Source: Leifsonia sp. Root1293 (GTDB lineage: Bacteria > Actinomycetota > Actinomycetes > Actinomycetales > Microbacteriaceae). From it: a stretch of DNA of 64,000 bases. The notes under the pieces were generated by a model that was not told the origin of the DNA, did no database searches, and worked only from the letters and a program-made list of their open reading frames with translations. This document shows positions 42,626-62,484 of the stretch, piece by piece; within the stretch, counting starts at the first letter, position 1, and each line of letters begins with the position of its first letter. The position numbers and the translations under genes were made by a program. The stretch is taken from assembly GCF_001425325.1 (NCBI RefSeq), contig NZ_LMEH01000001.1, positions 729,898 to 793,897 on the forward strand, written 5' to 3'.

Positions 42626-42670
42626 CTCCTGAGTCCCTCCGTAGCGGCTGACGGCAGTGACGTCATCGGC

Positions 42671-47806: not shown

Positions 47807-48616
47807 TCAATCCTCTGCGCGTCGCCAGTCGTCGGCGGTCAGGTGAGAGCCGGCCTGCGGGCCCATCTGGAGCATTCCGCCGTCGACGACGAGCGATGCT
47901 CCGGTCACGTACGACGAGGCCGGCGAGGCCAGGAACGCGATGACCGACGCGACTTCCTCTGCGCCTCCCGGGCGTCCGAGCGGAATGCCGGGGCGCCGAA
48001 TGTCAGTCGGGTCCTCGTCCTCGTTCCCCGTCATCGCGGTGGCGATCTCGCCCGGGGCGACGCTGTTCGCGGTGATCCCGTACTCGCCCAACTCGAGGGC
48101 GAGCGTCTTGATGAGTCCTCCGAGACCGTGCTTCGCCGCGTCGTACGCCGACGACCCGACCCGCGGTTGATGCTCGTGCACGCTGGTGACGGCGATGATC
48201 CTGCCCCCGGCGCCGGCGTCGACCATACGCCGCGCTGCTCGCTGGATGCAGACGAACGGGCCGCTGAGGTCTGCGGTGATCGTCGCATTCCAGGTGTCCC
48301 ATGACGTCTCGAAGAAGGCCGGTCCGCCGTTGATGCCGGCGTTGTTCACGAAGACATCGATTCCCCCGAGTCGCTCGCACAGTTCGTCGATGACATCGCC
48401 GCAGGATGGTGCCTGCGTCGTGTCGAGACGGGCGATGACGGCGCGTCGGCCCGCGGCCTCGACCAGGCGTGCCGTCTCGCGAGCCCCGTCCTCGTCGGAA
48501 TGCCACGTGATGCCGATGTCCATGCCGTTTCGGGCCAGCGCAACGGCGGTGGCGCGCCCGATTCCGGAATCGGATCCCGTGACGATCGCAGTGGATGGTT
48601 CGAAGGTCGTGTGCAT
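47807..48616 (-). CDS. SDR-family oxidoreductase (general-stress type)
   Basis: 269 residues from ATG 48616, eight bases after AGGTGA. Classical SDR: cofactor motif VTGSDSGIGRATAVALA, VNNAGINGG, and the active-site YDAAKHG with serine in AVTSVHEH upstream. The C-terminal SSYVTGASLVVDGGMLQMGP is typical of FabG-like and GSP39-like dehydrogenases. It carries its own bipartite promoter motif. Substrate unknown. Confidence 0.92.
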   Translation of the reverse strand: MHTTFEPSTAIVTGSDSGIGRATAVALARNGMDIGITWHSDEDGARETARLVEAAGRRAVIARLDTTQAPSCGDVIDELCERLGGIDVFVNNAGINGGPAFFETSWDTWNATITADLSGPFVCIQRAARRMVDAGAGGRIIAVTSVHEHQPRVGSSAYDAAKHGLGGLIKTLALELGEYGITANSVAPGEIATAMTGNEDEDPTDIRRPGIPLGRPGGAEEVASVIAFLASPASSYVTGASLVVDGGMLQMGPQAGSHLTADDWRRAED

Positions 48617-48652
48617 CTGAGGAATCACCTGTCTGTGGGTCACTGGAAGTCC

Positions 48653-48690
48653 ACGCTAGAACCGTGACCGGCGTCGCGCGCGGGGTTGAC
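48653..48690 (-). promoter_or_regulatory. Bipartite promoter motif of the SDR at 47807
   Basis: GTCAACCCC at 48690-48682 and TAGCGT at 48658-48653 on the minus strand, offset 32 bp. It separates the SDR gene from the glycosyltransferase island. Confidence 0.55.
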
Positions 48691-48706
48691 AGTTCGGTGC
48701 CCGGTG

Positions 48707-49975
48707 TCACCAGCCGCCGAGATAGGCCTCCAGGTCGACCTCCTCCTTCAGAAGCTCGATTCCCTCCGTGGTCAGGTTCACCGTCGGCAGTTGCGAGTCG
48801 TCACCCCACCGCATCCGCCGTCGCAGATGCCTTGTCGAGACGACGCGAAGCACAACGGTGCGAGACAGGTCTCTCACCACCACCTCTGCGCAGTTCTCGT
48901 TCTCCAGGGCAGCCATCGCGGGCCGCAGTGAGCCCCGGAGCACCCGGACGGGCTGCTCGACGATGATGCGGATGCGCACCCTGTCCCAGAGCCCGGCTCC
49001 GAGCTCGACGCCGTCGGGCAGGGGAGCCGCTGAGGGGAGCTCCGCGAGCAGGGAGTCGATGCTCACGAAACGCTGGGCATCCGTGCATCCTCCCAACCCA
49101 GTGGTGACGATGGCGATGTCCGGCCGAGCAGTCGGTGCGCCGACGGGCCGCGAACCCGGCACGGGGATCAATTCCGCGAGAGTCAGGGTCTCGGCGTTCT
49201 TCTTCATCAGGTCGGAGTCATGCCGGCCGGCGTGGTCGGGGCCGTCGTGCCACGCGACGGCGGAGGGCACGTGTGCCAGCAGAGCTCCGTGCAGCCAGGC
49301 GCGGTAGGCCCACTCCCAGTCCTCCCCGCCGTAGCTCGTGAAGCTCTCGTCGAAGCCGCCTGTCTCATCGAAGAAGCGCCGGCTGCAGCCGATGACCGCC
49401 CCGATGACGTGACGATAGCTGCGGAAGTCAGCCGTCAGCAGGTTGCCGGATGCCGCATAGCCCTCCCTCAGCCAGACCGGCTCTGTCAGTTCATTCTTCG
49501 GGCCGACGGACTCAACGTCGTCGTCGGTGGAAGCATCTGCGAAGTCGGCATGACGTCTGCGACCCACGACGACCGCGTCCCACGCGAGGCTGGGGAGCCG
49601 GGTGATCTCCCGCAGGTAGTCGGGTTCGGGCGCAGTGTCGGCATCGAGGAACACGAGCAGGTCGTTCGTGGCGGATGCCGCGCCGAGATTGCGAGCAGCA
49701 GCGAGCCGAAACCCCTCATCGGCCTGCCGGAGGAGGCGCACGCCGAAGGGCACGTGCGGCTGGCTCGCGGACCCGTCGTCGACCACGATGACCTCGACCA
49801 GATCGGCCGGGTACCTCTGCCGTGCGACAGCCCGGAGCGTGCGGGCGAGCTGTGTCGGCTGCTCGTAGTGGGCGACGATCACGGAGACGGATGCCGGTGA
49901 GGCTGCGTGCTGACCGTCCAGCAGGTCCCATCGATTGCCCGGGACCGCGCCGAGACGTGTGCCAGGTGCGATCAT
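48707..49975 (-). CDS. Family 2 glycosyltransferase with C-terminal extension
   Basis: 422 residues from ATG 49975, overlapping the stop of the next gene upstream. GT-A fold: VSVIVAHYEQPTQLARTLRA opens the domain, the DxD motif is FLDADTAP, and the acceptor-side motif FDESFTSYGGEDWEWAYRA is that of the galactosyltransferase-like C-terminal part. About 130 further residues after residue 290 have no recognised domain. It transfers a sugar in the cytoplasm; donor and acceptor are unknown. Confidence 0.9.
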   Translation of the reverse strand: MIAPGTRLGAVPGNRWDLLDGQHAASPASVSVIVAHYEQPTQLARTLRAVARQRYPADLVEVIVVDDGSASQPHVPFGVRLLRQADEGFRLAAARNLGAASATNDLLVFLDADTAPEPDYLREITRLPSLAWDAVVVGRRRHADFADASTDDDVESVGPKNELTEPVWLREGYAASGNLLTADFRSYRHVIGAVIGCSRRFFDETGGFDESFTSYGGEDWEWAYRAWLHGALLAHVPSAVAWHDGPDHAGRHDSDLMKKNAETLTLAELIPVPGSRPVGAPTARPDIAIVTTGLGGCTDAQRFVSIDSLLAELPSAAPLPDGVELGAGLWDRVRIRIIVEQPVRVLRGSLRPAMAALENENCAEVVVRDLSRTVVLRVVSTRHLRRRMRWGDDSQLPTVNLTTEGIELLKEEVDLEAYLGGW

Positions 49976-51039
49976 CGTGCCGCCAGACCGGCCCACCACG
50001 ACCCGTAGGCCGACGCGACGTCATCCATCGTCGGCCCCAGGGCGGTGCCGACGGGCAACCGGGTCGAGCCCGGCTGTCGCCAGGCATCCATGAGGTGCGT
50101 GCTCAGGCGCGCCGGGTCGTACAGTGCCATGGTGCCGGGTCGGAGGGCAGCCATCTCGGCCGCGTATCGCGACATCGGCACAAGAGGACGCCGCCCCTGC
50201 TCGATCCAATCGAGCATCGATCGTGAAGCCGAGAGGTGTTGGTGCGCCGCGACCGGAATGCCGTCCGCGACAGTCGCGCTTCGATACGAGGGCCCATCGA
50301 GGTAGCCGGTGGCTTCGAAGTGCACCCCGAGCGCGTCGGCCCGGGCACGCAGCGCGTCGACATCCGCCTCGTGTCCGAGCGACGGCCCGCCGATCGCGAC
50401 GACGACGCCGGGTCCGGGATTCTCGCCTGCCACCTGGAGTCGATCGCGTGCGTCGGCAACAGCGTCGATCACCTCCCCATGGCCCTTGCCGGGGTAGATG
50501 TAGCCGGCGATCAGAGCCGTCAGAGGTCGCTGCGCTCCGAGGCCGGACGTTGCCGGCGGATCAGCGCGCTGGGGCGTCGCCATCCGGGCACCGAGCGGGA
50601 TGACGGCAACGCGATCGAACGACGGATCCACATGCTCGGCGAGCAATCGGGCCTCGTGCTCGCTGTTCACGGCGACAGCCTGTGCTGCTCCGACGAACCG
50701 CGCGTAGGCGGACGCCCGTCGGGAGTACCCAGCGCCATCGGACTCCTGGGGAAGGTCGTGCAGGGTGATGCTCAGACTCGTGGCCGAGGCGAGCCGTTCG
50801 AGATTGTCGGCGGCCTCCTCGGGCGTCGAGCCGAAGAGCCGGTCCGTGACATGCAGGTGGACTCGAGCGGCAGGGGGCAGGAATGCTGCGCTCTCGACGG
50901 TGCGTGAGGCGTGCACCGCGCCCGCCAGACCCTGTGCCTGCGCCGCGGCTGCCAGCTCGTGCGCGTACTGCACGACGCCGTGTTCCTGGGGGCCGATGAT
51001 CAGAAGGTCGGGGTGATCGGCGGCGCGCATCTGGCACAT
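49972..51039 (-). CDS. GT-B glycosyltransferase (family 4-like)
   Basis: 355 residues. The N-terminal half (LLIIGPQEHGVVQYAHELAAAAQAQG) matches acceptor-binding GT4 domains, and the C-terminal half has AGYIYPGKGHGEVIDAV typical of GT4 nucleotide-sugar binding. It starts near 51039; an in-frame ATG three codons later is possible. It is translationally coupled to the downstream family 2 enzyme and divergent from the glycosyltransferase run on the other strand. Confidence 0.85.
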   Translation of the reverse strand: MCQMRAADHPDLLIIGPQEHGVVQYAHELAAAAQAQGLAGAVHASRTVESAAFLPPAARVHLHVTDRLFGSTPEEAADNLERLASATSLSITLHDLPQESDGAGYSRRASAYARFVGAAQAVAVNSEHEARLLAEHVDPSFDRVAVIPLGARMATPQRADPPATSGLGAQRPLTALIAGYIYPGKGHGEVIDAVADARDRLQVAGENPGPGVVVAIGGPSLGHEADVDALRARADALGVHFEATGYLDGPSYRSATVADGIPVAAHQHLSASRSMLDWIEQGRRPLVPMSRYAAEMAALRPGTMALYDPARLSTHLMDAWRQPGSTRLPVGTALGPTMDDVASAYGSWWAGLAAR

Positions 51040-51061
51040 GCTTGCTCATCCGGACGACTCC

Positions 51062-51100
51062 GTCAAGGGTGGGCCCCGGACACCGTCTCCGGCGTACGGT
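51062..51100 (+). promoter_or_regulatory. Bipartite promoter motif upstream of the plus-strand glycosyltransferase operon
   Basis: GTCAAGGGT at 51062-51070 and TACGGT at 51095-51100, offset 33 bp. The second half of box 1 is GGT rather than CCC, as also at 58031. Confidence 0.45.
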
Positions 51101-51144
51101 GAGGCCTGACGCCGCTCCACGGCGCAGGATCGGAGTGAGCCCGT

Positions 51145-52284
51145 ATGCAGCAGACTGTCCGGTTGTCGGCGATCCGCGCCGATGGCGACCTCGTCCTCGG
51201 TGACCCGCACGTCACCGTCGTGGCGGTTCCGGCCGGGCACCCGTACGTACGATCCGTGACCTCGTCGCTCGATGTGAGGGTCCTTCCCGATTCCACTTCG
51301 GCATCCACTCCCTCCCAGTGGTGGCCGCCCGCGGCCCTCGACCCAGACTGGATCCGGGCGCACGCGAAGGACGCCGACCTGATGCACATCCATTTCGGCA
51401 CGGAATCGTTCACACCGGAGCACCTGACGGACTGCCTCAGTGCGGCTCGAGAGGTCGGCTGGCCGGTGGTCTTCACCGTTCACGACATCGAGCATCCGCA
51501 GCTCGACCACCAGGACGGCTATCTCGAGCAGCTCGACGTGCTCATCCCCGGATCGGACGCCGTGCTGACGTTGACGCACGGCGCGGCCGAGGAGATCCGC
51601 CGACGGTGGGGACGATCGGCGCTGATCGTGCGTCATCCGTCCGTCCTCCCACCCGACGAGGATCTGCCCGCCGTCGCGGAGTCCACGGAGCTGCGGATCG
51701 GTATGCACCTGAAGGACCTCCGCCCGAACATCGACGCGGTTGCGATGGTGCGTGCGCTGGCCGTGGCCCTGGAGATCATCGCGACCTCGGGACTCGAGGT
51801 CGTCGCCGAGGTGCGGATGCATCGCGAGGTCAGGGATGAAGAGTCGCGCGAGGCTGTTCGCGAGATCGCGGGCCAGTGCGATCGGATGCTGCTCATCGAG
51901 CATGGGCGTCTCGACGATCGTGAGCTCGAGAGCTGCCTGGCCGGCCTCGACGCCTACGTGCTCCCGTACGGGCACGGCACCCACTCGGGTTGGCTCGAGC
52001 TGTGCTGGGATCTCGCGTTGCCGGTGGTGACGCCGCAACGCGGCTTCTACGCTGAGCAGCACCGTGAGGACAGCCACGCCTCCTTCTCGCCGGATCCGAC
52101 GGGTGAATCGCTCGCGGAGGCGCTCGTCGCCGTTCTCGACGCCCCGGACGCGACCCGACCCGGATCCGAAGAACGGCGGGCGCTCTTCGAGGCTCGTCGC
52201 GCCCACCGACTGCGTGCTGACGCGACGGGAGCCGCCATTCATGCGGCACTGTATCGGCAACTCGTCGGCGAGCGCAGATCATGA
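51145..52284 (+). CDS. Glycosyltransferase (GT-B, family 4-like)
   Basis: 379 residues from ATG 51145. The N-terminal part contains DADLMHIHFGTESFTPEHL and FTVHDIEHPQLD, resembling acceptor domains of GT4 enzymes; the C-terminal part ends with SGWLELCWDLALPVVTPQRGFY, the region that binds the nucleotide sugar. The classical EGFG-like motif is replaced here by GTHSGWLE. First gene of a four-gene overlapping operon. Confidence 0.82.
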   Translation: MQQTVRLSAIRADGDLVLGDPHVTVVAVPAGHPYVRSVTSSLDVRVLPDSTSASTPSQWWPPAALDPDWIRAHAKDADLMHIHFGTESFTPEHLTDCLSAAREVGWPVVFTVHDIEHPQLDHQDGYLEQLDVLIPGSDAVLTLTHGAAEEIRRRWGRSALIVRHPSVLPPDEDLPAVAESTELRIGMHLKDLRPNIDAVAMVRALAVALEIIATSGLEVVAEVRMHREVRDEESREAVREIAGQCDRMLLIEHGRLDDRELESCLAGLDAYVLPYGHGTHSGWLELCWDLALPVVTPQRGFYAEQHREDSHASFSPDPTGESLAEALVAVLDAPDATRPGSEERRALFEARRAHRLRADATGAAIHAALYRQLVGERRS

Positions 52285-53408
52285 CGGCAACGGCACCGCT
52301 GCGCATAGTCGTCATCGCCCCGCTCCGCTTTCCCATCCGGCGCCCGCATGCAGGGGGCCTCGAGTCAGCCGTCTGGAACGAGGTCAGTCAGCTTCGACGT
52401 CGCGGGCACAGTGTCACCCTCATCGCGCCCGAGGGTTCTGACTTCCTCGGACCGGAGGATGCGTTCAGCATCCCGCCGCTGGCGTGGCCCGATCGCGCTC
52501 GTCCGACCGACGACACCTACCCCGACAGCTACTACTGTCGAACGATCCCGGCTCTGGGGCGGGCACTCGACAAGGTTTCCGCACAGAGTGGGAGCTACGA
52601 CCTGATCTCCAACCACTGCCTCCATGGCCTGCCCCTGTCGCGAGCTGGCGAACTCGGGGTGCCCATGGTCACGACCCTGCACACTCCCGTCGACCGGCAC
52701 CTCGTCGAATCGCACGCGCGGGCGACGGGTCGCCGGAGCGAGTTCATGGCGGTGAGCGAGCACACTCGAGTGCAGTGGGCAGCTGCCGGAGTCGACTCGC
52801 ACGTTCTGCCGAACGCGGTGGATCCCGATACCTGGCGGCTCGGCCGCGGTGGAGGGGATCTGGTGTGGTTCGGTCGCATCGTTCCAGAGAAGGCTCCTCA
52901 TCTGGCGATCGAGGTCGCGAAGCGACTGGGGCGCACGCTGGTCATAGCCGGGCGTATCGGCGATGACGACTACGCTGATCGGCACGTGGTCCCGGCGCTC
53001 GGCGACAGCATTCGCTACGCGGGTCAGCTCTCGCCGGTCCAGCTCGCCAGGCTCGTCGGCCGCAGCGCGTGCTCGATCTCGACACCCGCTTGGGAAGAGC
53101 CGTTCGGGCTCGTCGCACCTGAAGCGCTGATGTGCGGAACTCCGGTCGTCAGTTTCGCTGTCGGCGGGGTCACTGAGATCGCGGCTGCGAGCGTCGGTAT
53201 GGAGACGGCGCCCCGCAACGACATCTCGGAGCTGGCCGACAGGGCAGCCGGGTTGATCGACCGTACGGACAGGGATCCGGAATTCCGCCGCGCCATCCGT
53301 GGCGCTGCCCAGTCGCGATACTCGCTGCCGGTGCGAACAGCAGCGCTCGAGGAGCGTTTCCGTACTGTTCTCGCCGGGCCCGCAGAAGCAGAGGAGGTGG
53401 CAGCATGA
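52281..53408 (+). CDS. Family 4 glycosyltransferase
   Basis: 375 residues, ATG overlapping the previous stop. Classical GT4: PIRRPHAGGLESAVWNEVSQLRRRGHSVTL in the N-domain and, in the C-domain, FGRIVPEKAPHLAIEVAKRLGR and the catalytic EEPFGLVAPEALMCGTPVV with the EX7E motif. Retaining transferase of unknown specificity. Its stop overlaps the next gene. Confidence 0.93.
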   Translation: MTATAPLRIVVIAPLRFPIRRPHAGGLESAVWNEVSQLRRRGHSVTLIAPEGSDFLGPEDAFSIPPLAWPDRARPTDDTYPDSYYCRTIPALGRALDKVSAQSGSYDLISNHCLHGLPLSRAGELGVPMVTTLHTPVDRHLVESHARATGRRSEFMAVSEHTRVQWAAAGVDSHVLPNAVDPDTWRLGRGGGDLVWFGRIVPEKAPHLAIEVAKRLGRTLVIAGRIGDDDYADRHVVPALGDSIRYAGQLSPVQLARLVGRSACSISTPAWEEPFGLVAPEALMCGTPVVSFAVGGVTEIAAASVGMETAPRNDISELADRAAGLIDRTDRDPEFRRAIRGAAQSRYSLPVRTAALEERFRTVLAGPAEAEEVAA

Positions 53409-54430
53409 CTCGTCAACGGGTCGCCTGGTACGTGCACCACCATGGCCGCGGTCATCTCATGCGCATGCTGTCCATCGTGCCCCATCTCGACTACGACGTC
53501 CTGGTCTTCAGCTCCCTTCCGCGCCCCGATGAGCTCCCGGACCACTGCGACTGGATCCGGCTGCCGATGGACGACGCAGTGGAACCGAGCGGCTCCCCGG
53601 CGGACAACGATCCGGAGGCAGGAGGGCTCCTGCACTGGGCGCCTCTTCTCCATACGGGTCATCGCCGACGATTGACGCTGATGGCAGAGGCCGTCGATCA
53701 GCAGCCGGTTCTAGCCTTCGTCGTCGACGTGTCCGTCGAGGTGGCCCTGTTCGCCCGGCTGCTCGGCATTCCGCCGGTACTCATCACTCAGCCGGGAATC
53801 CGAGATGATCCGCCGCACCTCCTCGCATTTCGGGCGGCAGCCGCCGTGATCGCGCCGTGGTCCGACGAGGTCCTCCGTCCGCGCCACCTCGCAGCGCTGG
53901 ACACCGTGTCCTATGTCGGCGGGATCAGTCGTTTCGACGGGCGTGCCAACAGTGGTCCCGAGCGTTCAGGAGTACTCGTCCTCGCCGGATCGGGGGGAAG
54001 CGCCGTCGATGCCGCCGCGGTGCGGGCGGCAGCAGCATCGACGAGCGCCCACCCGTGGACGAGTCTCGGCCTCTCCGGACAGGACGACGACGATTCCTGG
54101 ATGGACGATCCGTGGGAGGCGATCACGGGCGCGGCGGTCGTCGTCGCCTGGGCCGGCCAGAATTCGGTCGCCGACCTCGCTGCGGCGGGTTCGCGCGCCA
54201 TCGTCATTCCTCAGTCACGGCCATTCGAGGAGCAGGCGGGTACCGCTCGGGCTCTGGCCCGCACAGGGCTCGCGGTCGTGGAGTGGAATTGGCCGGAGCC
54301 CGGACAGTGGGATGGCCTGGTGGATCGCGCTCTGGCGCTTCAACCCGACTGGTCGCTGTGGCGCACGGCGGGTGCGGCCGGACGTGCTGCGGCTGTCATC
54401 GCGGCCGTGGTCGAGGGGCGGCAGCGGTGA
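53405..54430 (+). CDS. MurG-like (GT28-type) glycosyltransferase
   Basis: 341 residues, ATG overlapping the previous stop. The start VAWYVHHHGRGHLMRMLSI carries a GHGxR-like donor loop and the C-domain AWAGQNSVADLAAAGSRAIVIPQ with EEQAGTARAL closely resembles the UDP-GlcNAc site of MurG. It is not MurG itself, as it lacks the lipid I-binding motifs and lies outside a murein cluster. Probably adds a HexNAc-type residue. Confidence 0.85.
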   Translation: MTRQRVAWYVHHHGRGHLMRMLSIVPHLDYDVLVFSSLPRPDELPDHCDWIRLPMDDAVEPSGSPADNDPEAGGLLHWAPLLHTGHRRRLTLMAEAVDQQPVLAFVVDVSVEVALFARLLGIPPVLITQPGIRDDPPHLLAFRAAAAVIAPWSDEVLRPRHLAALDTVSYVGGISRFDGRANSGPERSGVLVLAGSGGSAVDAAAVRAAAASTSAHPWTSLGLSGQDDDDSWMDDPWEAITGAAVVVAWAGQNSVADLAAAGSRAIVIPQSRPFEEQAGTARALARTGLAVVEWNWPEPGQWDGLVDRALALQPDWSLWRTAGAAGRAAAVIAAVVEGRQR

Positions 54431-55254
54431 TGACAGGGACCCGCCCCACCAGGGCCGTCATCACGTTGTGCTCGACCCCCAGGGTCGATCACCTCCGCCG
54501 GCAGCTCGCCGCACTCGAGGAACGCAGCGACGTGCTCACAGTTCTCGTCTGGCTCGGCGACGACGAGCCGCCGTCGTTGGCCGTCGACGAGCTCGTCATG
54601 GTTCCGCCGGGCACCGATGGACTGCGTCTGGCCGCAGCGCGGAACGCCGGCGCAGACCGGGCGGTGCTGCGCGGTGCCGATCTGCTGATCTTCCTCGACG
54701 CCGACTGCGTCCCCGGTCTCGAACTCGTCGGCAGGTACGCCGCCGCGGCGATGGCGCGTCCGGATGCGGTGCTCTGCGGGCCGGTCACCTATCTCGCCGA
54801 GGGCATCGAGGTGTCCGACGTGGCCTCCCTTGGCGCGTTCACCCGCCCGCATCCTGCTCGCCCCGCACCGCCGGATGGCGAGTTGCTTGTGGCAGTACCG
54901 GGCGAGTACGAGTTGTTCTGGTCGCTCTCGTTCGCGCTGACGGCTGAGCTCTGGGCGTCATCTCCCCGGTTCGACGAGCGGTACGAGGGCTACGGCGGCG
55001 AAGACACCGACTTCGCCTTCGCGTTGAGGTCGTCGGGCATTCCCCTGGTCTGGATCGGGGGAGCCCACGCCTATCACCAGTACCATCCGACGTCCTCGCC
55101 TCCCTGGCGCCACCTCGACGACATCATCCGCAACGGTGGCGTCTTCGCCGAGCGGTGGAAGTCCTGGCCGATGGCGGGCTGGCTGAAGGAGTTCGCGGCG
55201 GCTGGCGCCATCGAGCGAGTCGGCTCCGGATGGCAGCGCACGAGCCGCGACTGA
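54430..55254 (+). CDS. Family 2 glycosyltransferase (galactosyltransferase-like)
   Basis: 274 residues from ATG 54430, whose first base is the last base of the preceding stop; a GTG one codon earlier is possible. GT-A motifs: DxD in FLDADCVPG and YEGYGGEDTDFAFALRSSG, the same acceptor motif as the enzyme at 48707. Final gene of the plus-strand run, convergent with the GT4 gene at 55289. Confidence 0.9.
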   Translation: MTGTRPTRAVITLCSTPRVDHLRRQLAALEERSDVLTVLVWLGDDEPPSLAVDELVMVPPGTDGLRLAAARNAGADRAVLRGADLLIFLDADCVPGLELVGRYAAAAMARPDAVLCGPVTYLAEGIEVSDVASLGAFTRPHPARPAPPDGELLVAVPGEYELFWSLSFALTAELWASSPRFDERYEGYGGEDTDFAFALRSSGIPLVWIGGAHAYHQYHPTSSPPWRHLDDIIRNGGVFAERWKSWPMAGWLKEFAAAGAIERVGSGWQRTSRD

Positions 55255-55288
55255 TCCGTCGGCGTCGTGAGCCTTCGCACTCGCCCTC

Positions 55289-56515
55289 CTAGCGGGTCGC
55301 GGGGACGGCGCCGAGGATCGAGTCGGCTGCGGCGGCCAGGTCTGCCGCGACGGGATCTGGTGCGAACCTGTCGACGCCGAGCGCACCCCGTCGAGCGAGG
55401 TTCTCGGCCAGAGCTGGTTGCGTCATCATCCGGGCGATCGCAGCGGCCAGGGCCGTCGGGTCCGCCGGAGGAACCATCAGGCAGTCATCGCCGTCGGTGC
55501 AGAAGTCGTCGAACCCGCTGCCCGTCGTGCACACCAGCGGTGTGCCGATGGCCTTCGCCTCCAGCGCCACGTTCCCGAATCCCTCCCACCGCGACGGGCA
55601 GATCGTCACAGCGGCCTCTCGGATGCCGCGATAGAGCTCGTCGCCGTCGACGTGCCCCAGCCAGGTGATCCGTGAGCGGGCGGCGTCCGGCACGAGGGCG
55701 AGCAGCTCCTGCCTGTCCGGTTCGAAGCGGCTGTCGCCACTGGCGCCTGCGAGCACGAGTCGGGCCTCCGGCATCCGCTGCCACAGATCGCCGAACGCAC
55801 TGAGGGCGTCCGTCACTCCCTTGCGCCGTTCGAGCCGGCCGAGGAAGAGGATCGTGGGAGCCGTGCCCTTCGGCCAGGCCGTCGGCAGCGGCGCCAGCCT
55901 CGACGCCGCCGCGGCATGATGCACGTCGACGCAGTTGCGCACCACGCGCACGGGCGGCAGCGACGGGAACGCGGCCTCGGTCCACGACGCCATCGCGTGG
56001 GAGATGGCGATGAGTCCGGCGGAGCGCCGAATCTGACGATCCTCCAGGCGGTTCTGCACGAATGCCGTGATGCGCGTGTCCCGAGGGAGGTCGCGCGAGT
56101 CGAACCCGGCGATCTCCGTGGCCAGCCGCAGGCTCGTCGCCAGGTTGGTCAGCAGCGGCGCCCCTCGAGGGAGCATGGCCCCGAGCCCACTCCACTCGGG
56201 TGCGAACACCCGGTCGTACGGAGTTCTACGGTACTGGCGCCTGACCAGGAGCGGTCGATGTACCAGGGTGAGATTCCGTGACCGGTGGCCGATGACGTGG
56301 AAACCCGCCAGGTTCACACCGGCCAGATCGGCGTCGGGCAGGGCGCTCGAATCAGAGAAGACCAGGAGGTCGATGCGGATCCCGGACCGTGCCAGTGCCG
56401 GGAGCAGAGCGGCGTAGTGACGCCCGATCCCTCCCGTGTAGCGGGTGAGGCCCGCGTACTCGGTCACTGCGACGAGCCAGCGCTCTCCTCGCCGCGGGGG
56501 CGCCTGCTCACTCAC
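55289..56515 (-). CDS. Family 4 glycosyltransferase
   Basis: 408 residues starting at GTG 56515, which overlaps the ATP-grasp stop (GTGA). The N-domain has YTGGIGRHYAALLPALARSGI, and the C-domain has FLGRLERRKGVTDALSAF and CPSRWEGFGNVALEAKAIGTPLV with the two catalytic glutamates. A second ATG at 56539 exists upstream but would overlap the previous gene. Cytoplasmic glycan-building enzyme of unknown specificity. Confidence 0.92.
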   Translation of the reverse strand: MSEQAPPRRGERWLVAVTEYAGLTRYTGGIGRHYAALLPALARSGIRIDLLVFSDSSALPDADLAGVNLAGFHVIGHRSRNLTLVHRPLLVRRQYRRTPYDRVFAPEWSGLGAMLPRGAPLLTNLATSLRLATEIAGFDSRDLPRDTRITAFVQNRLEDRQIRRSAGLIAISHAMASWTEAAFPSLPPVRVVRNCVDVHHAAAASRLAPLPTAWPKGTAPTILFLGRLERRKGVTDALSAFGDLWQRMPEARLVLAGASGDSRFEPDRQELLALVPDAARSRITWLGHVDGDELYRGIREAAVTICPSRWEGFGNVALEAKAIGTPLVCTTGSGFDDFCTDGDDCLMVPPADPTALAAAIARMMTQPALAENLARRGALGVDRFAPDPVAADLAAAADSILGAVPATR

Positions 56516-57408
56516 CGGTACCGTCGCGGCACGTGCCATGGCCGGCCGAAGTCGGCATTGAACGTCTCGGGGTCGAACGGGCTGTCGCCGCCTGCCGGGT
56601 AGCTCGTCAGCTCTCCGAACACGATCCGGTCGCCGGTCACGTACAGATCGACTCTGACGAAGTCGGTGTCGGCACCCAGTCGCTCGGCGATGTCGATGAG
56701 TTCCCCCAACCGCGCCGGGCGGCGATGGGGAGGATCGGCCCACGGCGGGCCTCCGCTGAGTGCCAGGTGCGTCCAGTCCCGGTCGTAGAAGTCCTGGGTG
56801 CGACGGGAGAACCGGCCGGAGTCGACCTGGATGAACCAGCACCGGCCATGGAAGACGAAGAGCTTGACGTCGTCGGGGATGGCCCCATCGGGCCCAGTGA
56901 GCAGTTCCTCGACGATGAGCCGCGGTCGCACCTGACCGTACGCCCATTCACGATTCGGTCCCTGCCCGTAGACCTGCGAGAGCCAGTGTTCTCCGATCCG
57001 CACGAGATGCTCTCGGTCGGCAGCCGGCCGCGGCACATGAGAGTAGACCCAGCTGTACTCTGCGACCGGCAGCCGCGCGTCGCTCGGCGCCTGCGCCGAC
57101 ACGACGACGACGGCACCACTGCCGTGCGTGGGCTTGATGACGAAGGCAGGTGGCAGCGTCACGGCCGCGAGGTCCTTCGGATCGTCGAGGATCGCGTGGG
57201 CGCGCGGGAGGTAGGCCGCGCCGACGATCGATGCGACATGATCGCGCACCGCGGCCTTGTCGGCGAAGGTGACGAGCAGCGGCCGGCGATCGCGCAGCAT
57301 CTTGTAGCGCACCTTGTCGGTGAAGGTTCGGGGAGACCTGGTGCCGAGCAGGCGAGACAATCGCACCAGCCGGCTCCGTTCCCGGAGCGGGATCTCGTCA
57401 GGCCTCAC
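56512..57408 (-). CDS. TupA-like ATP-grasp protein
   Basis: 298 residues of the ATP-grasp type related to TupA of teichuronopeptide synthesis. Motifs seen: KVRYKMLRDRRPLLVTFADK at the start, PPAFVIKPTHGSGAVVVVS as the ATP lysine loop, RLIVEELL and DDVKLFVFHGRCWFIQVD, and the metal-binding VRVDLYVTGDRIVFGELT. It probably forms an amide between a carboxylate and an amine on the glycan. Coupled to the GT4 gene downstream. Confidence 0.88.
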   Translation of the reverse strand: MRPDEIPLRERSRLVRLSRLLGTRSPRTFTDKVRYKMLRDRRPLLVTFADKAAVRDHVASIVGAAYLPRAHAILDDPKDLAAVTLPPAFVIKPTHGSGAVVVVSAQAPSDARLPVAEYSWVYSHVPRPAADREHLVRIGEHWLSQVYGQGPNREWAYGQVRPRLIVEELLTGPDGAIPDDVKLFVFHGRCWFIQVDSGRFSRRTQDFYDRDWTHLALSGGPPWADPPHRRPARLGELIDIAERLGADTDFVRVDLYVTGDRIVFGELTSYPAGGDSPFDPETFNADFGRPWHVPRRYR

Positions 57409-57505
57409 GCCGTGCTCGTCGCATCGTCCACGGTGGCACTGTACCGACCAGACCCGAACGCGATTGCGTGGGCCCCCTGCGGAAATTGTTGCCGGCGCCC
57501 GGAAT

Positions 57506-57859
57506 TCAGTCGTCTGCTCGATCCAGGAAGTCGAAGTCCTGCACCGAAGCGAGCCCCGGGAGCTCGTCGGACCACTGCGGCCGGGAGGGCTGCAGACGCG
57601 CGGTCAGGCGTTCCAGTTCGGCGATGACCTCGTCCTCGACGATGCTCTCAGCAGCGTTGTCGACTGTCGTGGCGAAGAGCTGGCTCGATGGCCCGATCAG
57701 CATGTGAGCGTGAGCCTGGCTTCCCGTATCGGTGATGACGGGAATCTCCACGATGTCTGATTCTCCGGTCTGGGCCAGCGCCCGCGCATAGCGAAGCAGC
57801 GCCTTGCAGGTGAGATCGTCGACCATGACCGTTCCGCCGGCGTAGTGCACACGTCGCAT
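57506..57859 (-). CDS. Uncharacterised small protein, paralogue B
   Basis: 117 residues from ATG 57859, a few bases after GAGGGAG. Closest relative in the window is the gene at 43825: shared TCKA-LRYARALA, SDIVEIPV and LIGPSSQLF blocks and the same length. It ends with an acidic FDFLDRADD tail like its paralogue. Soluble, function unknown. It also has the bipartite promoter motif, here with a leader of about 40 bases. Confidence 0.75.
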   Translation of the reverse strand: MRRVHYAGGTVMVDDLTCKALLRYARALAQTGESDIVEIPVITDTGSQAHAHMLIGPSSQLFATTVDNAAESIVEDEVIAELERLTARLQPSRPQWSDELPGLASVQDFDFLDRADD

Positions 57860-57903
57860 GCGACTCCCTCTTCCACTCCTCAATGACGTCCATGTCCCTG
57901 CCG

Positions 57904-57942
57904 ACGATAGATCCTCGCCAGCCACGAGGTTGAGGGCTTGAC
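57904..57942 (-). promoter_or_regulatory. Bipartite promoter motif of paralogue B
   Basis: GTCAAGCCC at 57942-57934 and TATCGT at 57909-57904 on the minus strand, offset 33 bp. Confidence 0.65.
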
Positions 57943-58030
57943 ATGAGCACGTCTCCCGATAGAACGGCCGAGCCCTCGGCGAGAGCTCCTGTCGATTCAC
58001 GAGACGCCATAACGTCGCCGTGACTGCGAT

Positions 58031-58069
58031 GTCAAGGGTCAGTCGATATTCGGCGCTCGAATCGAGAAT
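58031..58069 (+). promoter_or_regulatory. Bipartite promoter motif of the DUF2795 gene
   Basis: GTCAAGGGT at 58031-58039 and GAGAAT at 58064-58069, offset 33 bp, six bases before ATG 58076. Box 1 carries GGT in place of CCC. Confidence 0.5.
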
Positions 58070-58075
58070 GTGAGC

Positions 58076-58315
58076 ATGGACAGTTCATCGGGGAACACGA
58101 CACAACCTCTTTCCACAGACGAACGCGAGTCGATAGCCGGATGCCTGCGCACCGTCGACTACCCGGCGCATCGAGACGACATCCTGCGGGCGGCCACGTC
58201 TGACGGACTGAGCGCGAACGCCGTGGAGGCACTCCGGGCGCTTCCGGACGGCACGGACCAGAGCACCTTCTACGTGCTGCGGATGCTCGACCATGTCGAG
58301 GCCTCGCTCACCTGA
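58076..58315 (+). CDS. DUF2795 protein
   Basis: 79 residues from ATG 58076; a GTG two codons upstream is possible but leaves no room for a ribosome site. The core VDYPAHRDDILRAATSDGLSANAVEALRALPDGT matches DUF2795, a small helical family of actinobacteria. Function unknown. The -10-like GAGAAT six bases upstream suggests a leaderless transcript. Confidence 0.8.
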   Translation: MDSSSGNTTQPLSTDERESIAGCLRTVDYPAHRDDILRAATSDGLSANAVEALRALPDGTDQSTFYVLRMLDHVEASLT

Positions 58316-58335
58316 GCGGATCGTGCCTGCACGGC

Positions 58336-58363
58336 GATGGCCCTCGGCTCGACGAGGGCCATC
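58336..58363. terminator. Bidirectional terminator
   Basis: GATGGCCCTCG (58336-58346) and CGAGGGCCATC (58353-58363) form a perfect eleven-base-pair stem with a six-base loop, between the convergent DUF2795 and acidic-protein genes. Confidence 0.8.
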
Positions 58364-58387
58364 ACTGCGACCACACGGGCGGCCTCC

Positions 58388-58576
58388 TCAATCGATGCCG
58401 GTGACGATGTTCTCGTCCTCATAGTCGACGTCGTCCTCGTAGTCCATGTCGTCCGCAAGGTCGAAGGCAGGCGCGTCCTGCAGGTCGTCGATCGGAGGCT
58501 CCTCCACGTAGGCGAAGTCTCCTCCAGCGATGTCGGTCTCGAACTCATCGGAGTCCGGCATCCGCTCGTCCATCAT
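58388..58576 (-). CDS. Small acidic protein, 62 aa
   Basis: 62 residues from ATG 58576 (MMDERMPDSDEF) behind AGAAGGGAG. Very acidic, with DDMDYEDDVDYEDENIVTGID at the end in a DY-rich style close to the protein at 47507. Almost certainly disordered. Carries a bipartite promoter motif. Function unknown. Confidence 0.68.
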   Translation of the reverse strand: MMDERMPDSDEFETDIAGGDFAYVEEPPIDDLQDAPAFDLADDMDYEDDVDYEDENIVTGID

Positions 58577-58616
58577 GTTCGTTCTCCCTTCTGCCGGCGG
58601 CGATGCCGACACCTGA

Positions 58617-58656
58617 ACGCTAGGTCGATGCCGGCGCTGGCGCGGAGGGGCTTGAC
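58617..58656 (-). promoter_or_regulatory. Bipartite promoter motif of the acidic protein at 58388
   Basis: GTCAAGCCC at 58656-58648 and TAGCGT at 58622-58617 on the minus strand, offset 34 bp. Confidence 0.65.
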
Positions 58657-58777
58657 ATCACCCGGACCAGGACTCGAATGATTCTGATTCCGCGCCGAGA
58701 CGCCTCGGCGTAACCTTGACGTGTCGTTCGACACGCGTTCCCAGACCCCGAACGGAGATGAAAATGACGGTGACGAC

Positions 58778-59128
58778 ATGGGCACCCTGACATACGACGT
58801 GGTGAAGCAGATCCACTTCGATGATCGGCTGCTCGCGCACCTGCAGCTGGTCATCGCGACGAAGCTGCGCCGGGGTGAATCCTTCAACTTCTCGTGGAAG
58901 ACCGATCCGTCGGAAGGCAGCGGTCGTACGACCATCTGGCTGCATCCGGCCATCCCACTGCTGTACGAGTTCCAGGGCAGCCGACAGCCATCCATCAACA
59001 GGGTCTGGCTGGATGAACTGATGGCCTCCGCCGACTCGGTCACGGGGCTCCAGGTGATTCCGGAACCGCGGGAAGACCGCCCCCGTCGTCAGGACGATGA
59101 ACCGCTGCGGGCTAGTTCGCTTCAGTAG
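58778..59128 (+). CDS. DUF7882-family protein, copy 2
   Basis: 116 residues from ATG 58778; GGTGA lies four bases upstream. Paralogue of the gene at 44265 with shared LAHLQLVI, LRRGESFNFSW and IN--WLDELM blocks and a divergent charged C-terminal tail. A ten-codon frame (58758-58790) overlaps the start and could affect translation. No catalytic motif is seen. Convergent with the CinA gene fourteen bases away. Confidence 0.78.
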   Translation: MGTLTYDVVKQIHFDDRLLAHLQLVIATKLRRGESFNFSWKTDPSEGSGRTTIWLHPAIPLLYEFQGSRQPSINRVWLDELMASADSVTGLQVIPEPREDRPRRQDDEPLRASSLQ

Positions 59129-59142
59129 TGGACTCGGCCGAC

Positions 59143-59715
59143 TCAGCCGACCGGCTGACCGCGGCTGAGCATGGGAGCGGGAACGGGTGCTTCATCCTGA
59201 GGGCGGCTGGCCGTCTCGTCATGGTGCAGGTCTGCAGCGGCTTCGGCACCACCGAGCCGCGCCAGAAGCAGGCGCAGGGCGATGAACGTCGTCGTCGCCA
59301 CGACGTCCTCCGGGTCACCGCCGACCTGGATCTCGATCGCACTGGATCGGGCGCAGGTGGCGAGGCCGACGTAGACGGTGCCCGCCGGCTTCCCCTCGGC
59401 GGGACCCGGGCCTCCGACCCCGGTGACGGCGATGGCGTGGTGGACTCGCAGCAGCGCGGCTGCTCCCGCCGCCATCTCAGCAGCGGTCCTGGCCGTCACC
59501 ACGGGCCCCGGCTGCACCTTGAGCACTCTGAACTTGACGTCGTCGGCATAGGCGATGATGCCGCCCGCGAACCAGTCGGCAGCGCCGGGTGCGGCACCGA
59601 GGTACTGCGCTATCGAGCCCGATGTCAGCGATTCCGCACACCCGATGCGGATCCCGAGACGTGTCGCACGTTCGGCGATCAACGCTGCGACGTCAGTGCA
59701 TCGTGTGGAATTCAT
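59143..59715 (-). CDS. CinA-family nicotinamide-nucleotide amidohydrolase
   Basis: 190 residues of the CinA C-terminal (PncC) type, which deamidates nicotinamide mononucleotide in pyridine-nucleotide recycling. Motifs: GIRIGCAESLTSGSIAQYLG, DWFAGGIIAYADDVK and AVTGVGGPGPAEGKPAGTVYVGLA. The N-terminal MoaB-like domain of full CinA is absent. The C-terminus has a 35-residue extra tail. It is not next to recA or pgsA, the usual cinA neighbourhood, but in the stress-like region with its own bipartite promoter. Confidence 0.92.
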   Translation of the reverse strand: MNSTRCTDVAALIAERATRLGIRIGCAESLTSGSIAQYLGAAPGAADWFAGGIIAYADDVKFRVLKVQPGPVVTARTAAEMAAGAAALLRVHHAIAVTGVGGPGPAEGKPAGTVYVGLATCARSSAIEIQVGGDPEDVVATTTFIALRLLLARLGGAEAAADLHHDETASRPQDEAPVPAPMLSRGQPVG

Positions 59716-59766
59716 GGTTCCTCCAGTGCCTGCAGGAACACTGCGATGGATTCATGCGGCCCCATC

Positions 59767-59806
59767 ACGGTACGACGGCCACCGAGCGCAGGGCGAGGGG
59801 CTTGAC
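59767..59806 (-). promoter_or_regulatory. Bipartite promoter motif of the CinA gene
   Basis: GTCAAGCCC at 59806-59798 and TACCGT at 59772-59767 on the minus strand, offset 34 bp. Confidence 0.65.
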
Positions 59807-59834
59807 TGCACCATGCACAAGTGGTTCTACGGTT

Positions 59835-59873
59835 GTCAAGCCGCTTCGGTCGACGGCTTTCGGTGCCTACCCT
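59835..59873 (+). promoter_or_regulatory. Bipartite promoter motif of paralogue C
   Basis: GTCAAGCCG at 59835-59843 and TACCCT at 59868-59873, offset 33 bp, seven bases before ATG 59881, so a leaderless mRNA is predicted. Confidence 0.65.
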
Positions 59874-59880
59874 TAATTCC

Positions 59881-60219
59881 ATGAAGCACCTCACATTTGC
59901 AGAGAAGTCCCTGCTCATCGGTGATGATGCCGCCGATGCCCTCCTCGAGTACCTGCGGGTCCTGTCCACGGCCGGCGAAGCGGACACCGTGGAGCTGGCG
60001 GCGGTGGGGGCCGACGGCGACGACGTCGTCGTCAGCATGGTTCTGAGCTCCGGTGCGCCGATGATCGTCGAGACCACACGGAGCTCGGTGCCGGAACCCG
60101 ACAACACCGCCGCGGTGAAGCGCATGCGCGACCTGACGCGCCGAAGGGTGTCTCCTGCCACCGTGCAGCCCGATGAGGAGGCGACTTCATGGGGTCCCGA
60201 AGACTACGAGCTCGCCTGA
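59881..60219 (+). CDS. Uncharacterised small protein, paralogue C (divergent)
   Basis: 112 residues from ATG 59881. Distant relative of the proteins at 43825 and 57506: the same order of N-terminal hairpin, ALLEYLRVLSTAGEADTVEL helix-strand block and an acidic tail (WGPEDYELA), but IGP-SQLF is replaced by LSSGAPMIVE. No ribosome site is evident, consistent with leaderless translation. It ends ten bases before the CYTH-CHAD gene, so the pair is likely one operon. Confidence 0.72.
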   Translation: MKHLTFAEKSLLIGDDAADALLEYLRVLSTAGEADTVELAAVGADGDDVVVSMVLSSGAPMIVETTRSSVPEPDNTAAVKRMRDLTRRRVSPATVQPDEEATSWGPEDYELA

Positions 60220-60229
60220 TTCGCGAGTG

Positions 60230-61726
60230 ATGATGACGACGACGGACCTGTCCTCCGCTCCGGAGCTCGAGCGCAAGTACGACGTGTCCGACGAGACCCA
60301 GGAACCGGGGTTCGAGGGATTCCAGTCGGAACGCCTCGAGACGCTGTCGCTCCGGGCGTCCTACTTCGACACGGGGGAGCGCGCGCTGCTGCGACACCGG
60401 ATCACCCTGCGACGTCGTGCCGGCGGACACGACGACGGGTGGCACATCAAGACTCCGCTCAGGAGCGGCCGGCTGGAGACGCGTGCAGCGCTGAGCAATC
60501 ATCCGCCCGCATCCCTGCTCGACCGGGTGCGCGCCATCATCCGGGATGCCGAGCTCGTGCAGATCGCCACCGTCTCCACCGAGAGATCCGAGATCCGCCT
60601 GTTCCTCGACGGAACGGCTGTTGCGGAGTTCTCGGATGACAGGGTCACCGCCTCCGATGCGGCGTCCGGCACCCTCACGATGTGGCGCGAGTGGGAGGTC
60701 GAACTGCTGCCCGACGCGGCTGCCCGTGCTGACGCCGAAGACCTCCTCGATCGCATCGAGGCCTCCGTCATCTCAGCGGGAGCGGTGAACTCGTCGTCAC
60801 GGTCGAAGCTGGCCCGCGTCGTAGGCGAGGCAGCAGCCGTGGCCGCGACGAAGCCGCGGACCGCGCTCGAAGTCGCCGTCGGGATCGTGCATGAGCTGAC
60901 CGCCGCCCTGATCGATGCCGACATGGCGCTTCGCGCGGGGGATCGGTCAGCGGTCCACGAGATGAGGAAGACCCTCCGGCGCCTGCGGGCGGTCCTGGCC
61001 ACCACGCGACCGGTTCTCGCGTCGGCCGTGACGGACGACATCCGGGAGCGACTCTCCGACCTGGCACATGTGCTCGCTCCCGTCCGCGAGGCTCAGGTTC
61101 GTCGCGAGCAGGCGGCCCGTCTTCTCGCCGACGAGCGCCGCGCCGACTTCCCGGCGCAGGTGCGCGAGCGTCTCGAGGCCGACGCGAACGGACGGGCAGC
61201 GGACGGAGAGGACGCGATCAACGCGCGTCTCGACTCGACGGCTTACTTCCGGCTGCTCGACGACCTCGAGCTGCTCGCCTCTCGGCCTCCCATCGCACGC
61301 GACTTCGCGAGAAAGCCGCGAGCACGCTTCGAGAAGTCGGCCCGCAAGCAGCTGCTGAGGGTGTCGAGGCGACTGGCCGCTCTCGATCCAGACGACCTGG
61401 CCAGCATGCATCGAGCGCGCAAGGCTGCTCGTCGGTTCCGCTACGCGGTCGAGGCGCTCTCATCACCTCCGGCATCGGTCCTGAGCAAACGGTGGCGCGC
61501 CGTCGGCAAGGCGGCGAAGGCGATCCAGGATGCGGCTGGAGAACACCGCGATACCCTCCTGCTCGTCGACGACCTCACCCGCATGGCGCGCGACGCCGCG
61601 ACCGCGGGCGAGAACTCCGCTTTCTACGGCATGCTTGCTGAAGCGCAGAGCCGCCGCGCGGAGTCCCTGGTCGACGACGTGATGAGAGCCGCTGAGAGTT
61701 TCCGTTCGGCCGCGGCGTCGCTTTAG
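60230..61726 (+). CDS. CYTH and CHAD domain protein
   Basis: 498 residues from ATG 60230 (a GTG precedes it). The CYTH part (about 1-200) has the ELERKY signature (ExExK), SYFDTGERALLRHRITLRRR and a metal-binding acidic strand EWEVELLP. The CHAD part (about 220-495) is helical and histidine-containing (DRSAVHEMRKTLRRLRAVL and DLASMHRARKAARRFRYAVEAL). Such proteins bind or act on polyphosphate and triphosphates. Likely role is polyphosphate metabolism or granule binding. Confidence 0.92.
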   Translation: MMTTTDLSSAPELERKYDVSDETQEPGFEGFQSERLETLSLRASYFDTGERALLRHRITLRRRAGGHDDGWHIKTPLRSGRLETRAALSNHPPASLLDRVRAIIRDAELVQIATVSTERSEIRLFLDGTAVAEFSDDRVTASDAASGTLTMWREWEVELLPDAAARADAEDLLDRIEASVISAGAVNSSSRSKLARVVGEAAAVAATKPRTALEVAVGIVHELTAALIDADMALRAGDRSAVHEMRKTLRRLRAVLATTRPVLASAVTDDIRERLSDLAHVLAPVREAQVRREQAARLLADERRADFPAQVRERLEADANGRAADGEDAINARLDSTAYFRLLDDLELLASRPPIARDFARKPRARFEKSARKQLLRVSRRLAALDPDDLASMHRARKAARRFRYAVEALSSPPASVLSKRWRAVGKAAKAIQDAAGEHRDTLLLVDDLTRMARDAATAGENSAFYGMLAEAQSRRAESLVDDVMRAAESFRSAAASL

Positions 61727-61761
61727 AACCATCTCCCGGGCGGGCTGTCCAGGCGGGGCGC

Positions 61762-62475: not shown

Positions 62476-62484
62476 TTTTCGATC

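What the first reader, a model, noticed from the sequence alone, without database searches (positions are those of the whole stretch)
48707..57408. Eight-gene glycosyltransferase island without flippase, polymerase or sugar-nucleotide genes
Two family 2, three clear or probable GT-B family 4, one MurG-like and one further GT-B enzyme plus a TupA-like ATP-grasp are arranged in three coupled groups. Known surface polysaccharide clusters carry Wzx/Wzy or ABC exporters and sugar-nucleotide enzymes; none is here. An ATP-grasp that can form amides suggests a glycan decorated with an amino acid or peptide, built on a carrier or protein in the cytoplasm. The island sits inside the stress region and its plus-strand operon carries a variant of the regulon promoter.
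Basis: partly seen in the sequence, partly recalled or inferred. Interest (0 to 1): 0.62.

Follow-up and report, generated by a model that had tools for sequence, protein, structure and literature searches.

The report
Conserved actinobacterial glycosyltransferase island without exporter
Eight neighbouring genes in this actinobacterium form a sugar-assembly kit whose core recurs, usually in the same gene order and with no consistent export or sugar-supply genes, in scattered actinobacteria, and probably makes a short modified sugar molecule that stays inside the cell or on its membrane and may help in stress.

Summary
In detail: eight genes at 48707-57408 (two GT2, five GT-B, one TupA-like ATP-grasp) in three overlapping groups, with no flippase, polymerase, initiating-transferase or sugar-nucleotide match in the window. 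It is not a private oddity. A g5 relative occurs in 21 of 119 family, 60 of 297 order, 54 of 394 class and 12 of 296 phylum genomes sampled (own genome included) and on seven Rhodococcus plasmids; the core g3-g6, often with divergent g1-g2, is usually syntenic. Partner genes are no commoner beside it than in control stretches. g4 is nearest, among solved structures, to soluble small-molecule glucosyltransferases. Stress linkage is mixed: a matched test was null (5/40 v 5/40); a second found GAF-ANTAR genes in 5 of 20 loci, 0.3 expected. Best reading: a carrier-free or inner-leaflet, decorated hetero-oligosaccharide; the product is not shown. The regulon promoter was not found.

The parts
48707..49975 (-). 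g1: GT2 glycosyltransferase, catalytic half plus a C-terminal part of about 130 aa without a Pfam match
   Evidence: profile best solved relatives are chondroitin synthase 2z86/2z87, E 2.4e-39
49972..51039 (-). g2: divergent GT-B (GT4-like) glycosyltransferase
   Evidence: weak MshA-type similarity
51040..51144 (.). divergent spacer between the two operons; TTGACG at 51061-51066 on - and TACGGT at 51095-51100 on +, shared with close relatives
   Evidence: by eye; function inferred
51145..52284 (+). g3: GT-B (GT4-like) glycosyltransferase
52281..53408 (+). g4: GT4 glycosyltransferase of the glucosylsucrose-synthase / tetrahydrobiopterin-glucosyltransferase-like group
53405..54430 (+). g5: GT28/GT1-type GT-B glycosyltransferase (MurG-like), used here as marker of the cluster
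   Evidence: AlphaFold model pLDDT 85.6, fold matches CalG4, UGTs, MurG
54430..55254 (+). g6: GT2 glycosyltransferase, galactosyltransferase-like
55289..56515 (-). g7: GT4 glycosyltransferase, marker of the window's sub-clade of the cluster
56512..57408 (-). g8: TupA-like ATP-grasp, putative amidoligase, accessory
   Evidence: fold matches ATP-grasp ligases

Best explanation
The island is one copy of a conserved actinobacterial glycan-assembly locus that spreads horizontally. Four enzymes (g3-g6) add sugars one after another to an acceptor that the cell already has, drawing on the cell's general nucleotide-sugar pool; in many lineages g1 and g2 extend the product. A variable slot then decorates it: a WcbI-type acyl group in most g1-g2 loci, or in the window's clade another sugar added by g7, which g8 may turn into an amide if that sugar is a uronate. 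Because no initiating transferase, flippase or polymerase was detected beside the locus in any set sampled, the product is most likely a short hetero-oligosaccharide that stays in the cytoplasm (or on an inner-leaflet lipid), comparable in logic to cyanobacterial glucosylsucrose, and possibly used under stress. Shown: gene set, synteny, distribution, the slot, no excess of partner genes. Inferred: order of action, donors, acceptor, cytoplasmic fate, stress role.
For: Conservation: g5 relative in 21 of 119 family genomes (single sequence, E 1e-10), 60 of 297 order (profile, 1e-10), 54 of 394 class (1e-20) and 12 of 296 phylum genomes (1e-20), own genome counted in each. g4-g5-g6 in one order and strand in 75 of 77 named, 31 of 40 order, 18 of 18 class, 16 of 19 family loci (the named, order and family sets share some loci). 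Partner genes: as above. g4: profile finds glucosylsucrose synthase 7fg9 (1.4e-56) and tetrahydrobiopterin glucosyltransferase 5zer (1.6e-53) far above PimA (4n9w, 1.3e-21); the UDP-contacting Arg179 and Lys184 of TeGSS (PMC9909042, section 13) align with invariant R199 and K204 of g4. Slot: WcbI only in loci with g1 or g2 (65 of 99; 0 of 61 without), with GNCQ invariant in 15 rows, profile match to solved WcbI 4bqn (6.2e-11). No clear membrane segment: hydropathy peaks of the eight are 0.89 to 2.06 against 2.63 and 2.31 in two neighbouring membrane-type proteins. Stress: ANTAR in 5 of 20 class-level loci, 0.30 expected, P 1.6e-5; SigB/F-type sigma in 3, 0.46 expected, P 0.011; Rhodococcus plasmid copies near a CinA-family gene (3 of 3 read), DUF4383 (1 of 3), SigB/F/G (1 of 3).
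Against: The matched stress test was null: 5 of 40 order-level loci against 5 of 40 control stretches with any of 11 chosen stress queries. The acceptor-contacting Trp10 and Tyr18 of glucosylsucrose synthase are not kept in g4 (R16 and A24), so sucrose is not supported as acceptor. g5 and g1 fit lipid- or polymer-acting enzymes (MurG, chondroitin synthase) as well. The hydropathy peaks of g5 (2.06 at residue 102) and g3 (1.80 at 196) exceed 1.6, a customary mark for membrane segments (recalled); for g5 the stretch falls in a strand and helix of the model, for g3 it was not checked. Absence of partner genes beside the locus does not exclude partners elsewhere; this genome has three initiating transferases and two clear flippase-type genes. 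An acyl-CoA dehydrogenase family lies near the cluster in four Rhodococcus loci. No donor or product is known for any of the eight.
Confidence: 0.42

Rival explanations
1. The enzymes build the headgroup of a membrane glycolipid on the cytoplasmic leaflet, with acyl or amide decoration, and it is not or is passively flipped.
For: No flippase needed; g5 is GT28/GT1-like as are MurG and glycolipid synthases; PimA is among the weaker solved relatives of g4; an acyl-CoA dehydrogenase family recurs near four Rhodococcus copies.
Against: PimA scores far below the small-molecule enzymes for g4 (1.3e-21 against 1e-53 to 1e-56). No lipid-making gene was seen among the few recurring neighbour families that I identified; most neighbour families were not identified.
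Confidence: 0.25
2. A surface or secreted glycan assembled on polyprenyl phosphate, with initiation, flipping and polymerisation supplied by genes elsewhere in the genome.
For: WcbI and TupA-like enzymes are known from capsule loci (PMC4104973 passages; PMC11800379 passages); three PF02397 transferases and two clear PF01943 genes exist in the genome; g1 resembles chondroitin synthase.
Against: No initiating transferase, flippase or polymerase match in 161 loci and no excess of sugar-nucleotide or ABC-type genes; the genome's PF02397 and PF01943 genes sit near each other and near other GT4 genes, far from the island.
Confidence: 0.18
3. Glycosylation of a small metabolite (pterin, carotenoid, siderophore or another natural product) made elsewhere.
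For: g4 near tetrahydrobiopterin glucosyltransferase; g5 model nearest to calicheamicin CalG4 and other natural-product glycosyltransferases.
Against: Many transferases for one small scaffold; no scaffold-making gene among the few recurring neighbour families identified; fold matches at 10-19% identity are not diagnostic.
Confidence: 0.1

Closest known systems
Glucosylsucrose synthase TeGSS / Alr1000 of cyanobacteria (PMC9909042; outline with abstract, sections 13 and 15 read)
   Same: GT4 group of g4; acts without lipid carrier; UDP-contacting Arg and Lys kept; product rises in salt or heat stress
   Different: One enzyme, sucrose acceptor; acceptor residues Trp10 and Tyr18 not kept in g4; no multi-enzyme cluster, no acyl or amide decoration described in the parts read
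Burkholderia WcbI (PMC4104973; passages read)
   Same: Family PF18588 with GNCQ, in the slot between g2 and g3 of most g1-g2 loci
   Different: Works in a capsule cluster, which has export genes (recalled); WcbI is absent from the window's genome; its acetyltransferase activity was not detected in that paper's assays
TupA-like amidoligase domain Cj1438C of the Campylobacter jejuni capsule (PMC11800379; passages read)
   Same: TupA-like ATP-grasp that works together with glycosyltransferases
   Different: There a domain fused to a GT2 in a capsule locus, acting on glucuronate; here a separate, accessory gene overlapping a GT4, substrate unknown
Mycobacterial methylated and acylated cytosolic polysaccharide loci (recalled, not searched)
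   Same: Cytosolic glycan with acyl decoration made without exporter
   Different: Methyltransferases and glycogen-type enzymes there (recalled); not compared by any search

Membership tests
Wzx/Wzy- or ABC-dependent surface polysaccharide cluster | Initiating transferase, flippase/exporter, polymerase and sugar-nucleotide genes in the locus | tested here: not met
   18 E. coli queries: none in the window; 0/80, 2/40, 1/20, 0/21 loci against 3/40 controls. Own-genome queries: flippase-type 0/160 v 0/40 (one query surely the flippase, L248), ABC-type 21/160 v 8/40. Positive control only for the initiating transferase, 3 of 3
Glucosylsucrose synthase (g4) | UDP-contacting Arg179 and Lys184 | tested here: met
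   align with R199 and K204, invariant in 14 of 14 rows
Glucosylsucrose synthase (g4) | Acceptor-side Trp10 and Tyr18 | tested here: not met
   R16 and A24 in g4
TupA-like ATP-grasp (PF14305) | Family profile over the curated cut-off and ATP-grasp fold | tested here: met
   112.1 bits against cut-off 25; Foldseek best 3wvr, Ddl, PsnB, with query TM-scores of at most 0.48
TupA-like ATP-grasp (PF14305) | Amide bond formation on a uronate | not testable with these tools
   needs enzyme assay
SigF/SigB-type general stress regulon | GTTT-N-GGGTA promoter upstream of the operons | tested here: not met
   0 matches in the window; the consensus is the mycobacterial/streptomycete one, recalled, and may not fit this family
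SigF/SigB-type general stress regulon | Genomic association with stress genes | tested here: inconclusive
   5/40 v 5/40; ANTAR in 5 of 20 loci v 0.30 expected; wider scan of 79 queries: ANTAR 13/160 v 0/40 (P 0.050), Mn-catalase 9/160 v 0/40 (P 0.13), Zn-ADH 21/160 v 1/40 (P 0.040) or, with the window's own gene, v 2/40 (P 0.12)

The most novel reading that the evidence does not exclude
Actinobacteria share an undescribed, horizontally spreading pathway for a cytosolic, carrier-free hetero-oligosaccharide of about four to seven sugars with an exchangeable terminal decoration (acyl by WcbI, or an amidated uronate by g7-g8), serving as a stress protectant: a multi-enzyme counterpart of cyanobacterial glucosylsucrose.
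Probability: 0.28. Interest if true: 0.75.

Novelty: new variant of a known kind. Interest (0 to 1): 0.52.

Why it matters
A gene set this widely kept, in Microbacterium, Rhodococcus, Mycolicibacterium, Streptomyces, Actinoplanes and other genera, should make a defined molecule, yet no title or abstract in the listings seen describes it. The cluster gives one clear experiment (compare soluble sugars with and without it) and a natural comparison of two decoration forms. It would also give the orphan enzyme WcbI a tractable, non-pathogen setting in which to find its substrate.

Tried and rejected
Regulon promoter: GTTT-N-GGGTA gave 0 matches; a generic sigma-70 scan of 48000-58000 found 0; two-block motif counts in upstream or intergenic DNA gave nothing convincing. 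Rejected as unsupported.

Stress linkage as a general rule: the first test, with 11 queries picked after looking at the window and the named loci, was null in matched order-level controls (single queries: ANTAR 2 v 0, Mn-catalase 2 v 0, sigma 1 v 1, KdpB 1 v 1, DUF7882 0 v 1, TreX 0 v 2; outside the eleven, ADH 7 v 2, SDR 4 v 6, EAL 1 v 4). I kept both this and the later density test on 20 class-level loci. The wider scan has 79 queries and only order-level controls; its best single P values are 0.040 and 0.050 before any correction. It is a lead.

WcbI and g7 as strict alternatives: 0 of 63 named g1/g2 loci have both (Fisher 6.7e-10), 0 of 20 order, 0 of 5 class, 1 of 11 family (L034). The g1 tree puts nearly all g7 rows in one starred set (27 rows: 20 g7, 6 neither, 1 both); g7 needs at least 4 changes and WcbI 7. 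The Fisher value therefore counts few independent events. I do not claim functional exclusion.

Sensitivity: E. coli queries are blunt for Wzx and Wzy. The own-genome exporter queries were the longest open frame of each locus; for the flippase only L248 agrees in length with the frame. Profile searches of solved structures for g2 and g3 were weak. Alignment A4 (g2) holds one wrong row (L064:5223-6482, in truth a g1), which lowers its invariants and weakens. The home-made gene caller fuses or misses some genes, so final presence counts use tblastn. PADLOC: one weak Cas8g match of g5 (0.0092), discarded. Viral contigs: no relative of g5.

Set overlap: the named, family and order sets share loci; the g1 tree had 97 rows, 90 different. 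The family set has 20 loci: L038 and the g8-centred L022-L026 were left out.
Full report
What was claimed and what is there. The frames, strands and overlaps are right, and Pfam supports g1, g4, g7 and g8 strongly and the rest weakly. I name them in map order: g1 GT2 and g2 GT-B on the minus strand; g3 GT-B, g4 GT4, g5 MurG-like GT-B and g6 GT2 on the plus strand; g7 GT4 and g8 TupA-like ATP-grasp on the minus strand. The window lies at G000:C1:729898-793897 of a genome of 3.61 Mb in two contigs, completeness 100.

It is a conserved locus. With g5 as marker, 21 of 119 family genomes (single sequence, E 1e-10), 60 of 297 order genomes (profile, 1e-10), 54 of 394 class genomes (1e-20) and 12 of 296 phylum genomes (1e-20) have a relative. 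The own genome is counted each time, and nearer genomes reappear in wider draws. The named scan kept 80 loci, nearly all with actinobacterial names: Microbacterium 19, Frigoribacterium 11, Rhodococcus 6, down to one Solirubrobacter; one bears the name Planococcus and is probably misnamed. g4-g5-g6 stand in one order and strand in 75 of 77 named, 31 of 40 order, 18 of 18 class and 16 of 19 family loci; g3-g4-g5-g6 in 71 of 73, 18 of 30, 17 of 18 and 16 of 16; g1-g2 point away from g3 in 60 of 62, 13 of 20, 3 of 5 and 9 of 9. In some order-level families the plus-strand genes are rearranged. Flanking genes mostly differ between genera.

Presence counts (tblastn), for 80 named / 40 order / 20 class / 20 family loci: g1 62/20/5/9; g2 63/20/5/11; WcbI 40/13/4/8; g3 74/30/19/16; g4 77/40/18/19; g5 80/40/20/20; g6 80/40/19/20; g7 17/3/0/2; g8 5/0/0/1. 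So the core is g3-g6, g1-g2 are a second module, and g7 and g8 are accessories. g8 also moves on its own: of 8 of 119 family genomes with a g8 relative, several carry it away from the g5 locus.

The slot. Seven family-level loci showed an extra gene beside g2 or g7; the four scanned are WcbI by Pfam, E 1.5e-60 to 4.7e-67. WcbI never occurs in a locus without g1 or g2 (65 of 99 with, 0 of 61 without), keeps GNCQ in 15 of 15 aligned rows, and its profile finds the solved Burkholderia protein, for which CoA binding is reported but no acetyl transfer was detected (PMC4104973, passages). It is absent from the window's genome. On the tree of g1 the window sits in a starred set of 27 rows with 20 g7, 6 neither and 1 both. 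That set mixes Microbacteriaceae with Cellulomonas, while Microbacterium, Frigoribacterium and Frondihabitans also appear outside it among WcbI rows. Together with patchy presence and copies on 7 Rhodococcus plasmid records of 72,556 (5 predicted mobilizable), this points to horizontal spread. In the window the eight genes have lower third-position G+C (0.811 against 0.855) and less typical codons than 52 other genes (P 0.0075 and 0.0044).

Partner genes are not hidden nearby. Eighteen E. coli proteins for flipping, polymerisation, initiation and sugar-nucleotide synthesis found nothing in the window and gave hits in 0 of 80, 2 of 40, 1 of 20 and 0 of 21 loci, all of ugd or manB type, against 3 of 40 control stretches. 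With own-genome queries, flippase-type hits were 0 of 160 against 0 of 40 and ABC-type 21 of 160 against 8 of 40; the window itself has ABC-type matches only at 96-713 and 5590-7134. The genome's three PF02397 transferases and two clear PF01943 genes lie at C1:2.13-2.15 Mb and C2:0.99-1.03 Mb, beside other GT4 genes and at least 1.33 Mb from the island.

What the enzymes resemble. g4's profile hits glucosylsucrose synthase and tetrahydrobiopterin glucosyltransferase at 1e-53 to 1e-56 (a third such entry, 9v0l, 2.1e-49), PimA and 2iuy only at 1e-21. TeGSS makes glucosylsucrose that accumulates in salt stress (PMC9909042, section 15). Its donor-side Arg179 and Lys184 are kept in g4, its acceptor-side Trp10 and Tyr18 are not, so the donor class may be shared and the acceptor not. 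g5's model (pLDDT 85.6) is a GT-B nearest to CalG4, plant and bacterial UGTs and MurG at 10-19% identity. g1 resembles chondroitin synthase. g8's model (pLDDT 72.9, its ends poorly predicted) matches ATP-grasp ligases with query TM-scores of at most 0.48; a TupA-like domain of C. jejuni amidates glucuronate with serinol phosphate or ethanolamine phosphate (PMC11800379, passages). Hydropathy gives no clear membrane segment, though the peaks of g5 (2.06) and g3 (1.80) are high.

Stress. The window is rich in stress-type genes: Mn-catalase at 42671, GAF histidine kinase at 36116, GAF-ANTAR at 61762 and 62485, CHAD at 60173, CinA at 59143. In the named set, ANTAR, SigB/F-type sigma, KatG and Kdp genes appeared beside the cluster in different genera. 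The first formal test, on 40 order-level loci against 40 stretches of the same contigs, was null: 5 against 5. The second, on 20 class-level loci that had not been used to choose the queries, found ANTAR in 5 loci where genome-wide density predicts 0.30 (P 1.6e-5) and the sigma type in 3 where 0.46 is predicted (P 0.011); matched control stretches could not be had. Three of the seven plasmid copies were read: each has a CinA-family gene within about 8 kb; DUF4383, zinc alcohol dehydrogenase and SigB/F/G are near one each. A wider scan of 79 queries gave ANTAR 13 of 160 against 0 of 40, Mn-catalase 9 against 0, Zn-alcohol dehydrogenase 21 against 1, while an SDR ran at 16 against 5 (single P values 0.050, 0.13, 0.040 and 0.78, uncorrected). 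I conclude that stress linkage is likely in some orders and unproven as a rule.

Reading. The most economical account is a stepwise, carrier-free (or inner-leaflet) assembly of a short hetero-oligosaccharide with a variable decoration. Gene set, synteny, slot and lack of adjacent partners are shown; donor sugars, acceptor, order, place and use are inferred. Rivals are an inner-leaflet glycolipid, a carrier-linked surface glycan with scattered partners, and a glycosylated small metabolite. Searches of the paper library for WcbI, TupA-like, SigF with glycosyltransferase, and Microbacteriaceae glycosyltransferase clusters returned no description of this locus in the listings seen; most listed papers were not opened, several searches had far more hits than listed, and the library lacks most subscription papers. 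Passages of PMC5550956 do not describe it.

Noticed in passing
window 48707-49120 (C-terminal part of g1): About 130 aa after the GT2 domain, present in the aligned g1 relatives, often ending in a YLGGW-type tail, without a Pfam match.
   Followed up: partly
window 36116-43552 and 57506-63129: A dense set of stress-type genes: GAF histidine kinase, PNPOx-like, Zn-ADH, SDR, Mn-catalase, CinA, CHAD/CYTH, two GAF-ANTAR proteins.
   Followed up: partly
L234, L235, L237: Rhodococcus megaplasmids carry the g3-g6 core in gene islands with CinA-family genes (all three) and, in one or two each, HemK2-like methyltransferase, DUF4383, YihY/BrkB, DUF3618 and SigB/F/G genes; CinA and DUF4383 also occur around the window's island.
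   Followed up: partly
L132, L136, L147, L137, L158, L138, L160, L169: Rearranged forms of the core in other families of the order (for example g5-g3 opposite to g4).
   Followed up: no
L236 (MT835530.1:2853-3785): A g5 relative (44%) on an unverified faecal scaffold labelled bacteriophage; may be bacterial DNA.
   Followed up: no
window 44265-44591 and 58721-59128: Both hit the same set of loci; 58721 is DUF7882, so these may be two copies of one small family near the island.
   Followed up: no
L053: Record named Planococcus sp. APC 4015 carries a g7-type cluster of the Microbacteriaceae kind and is probably misnamed.
   Followed up: no
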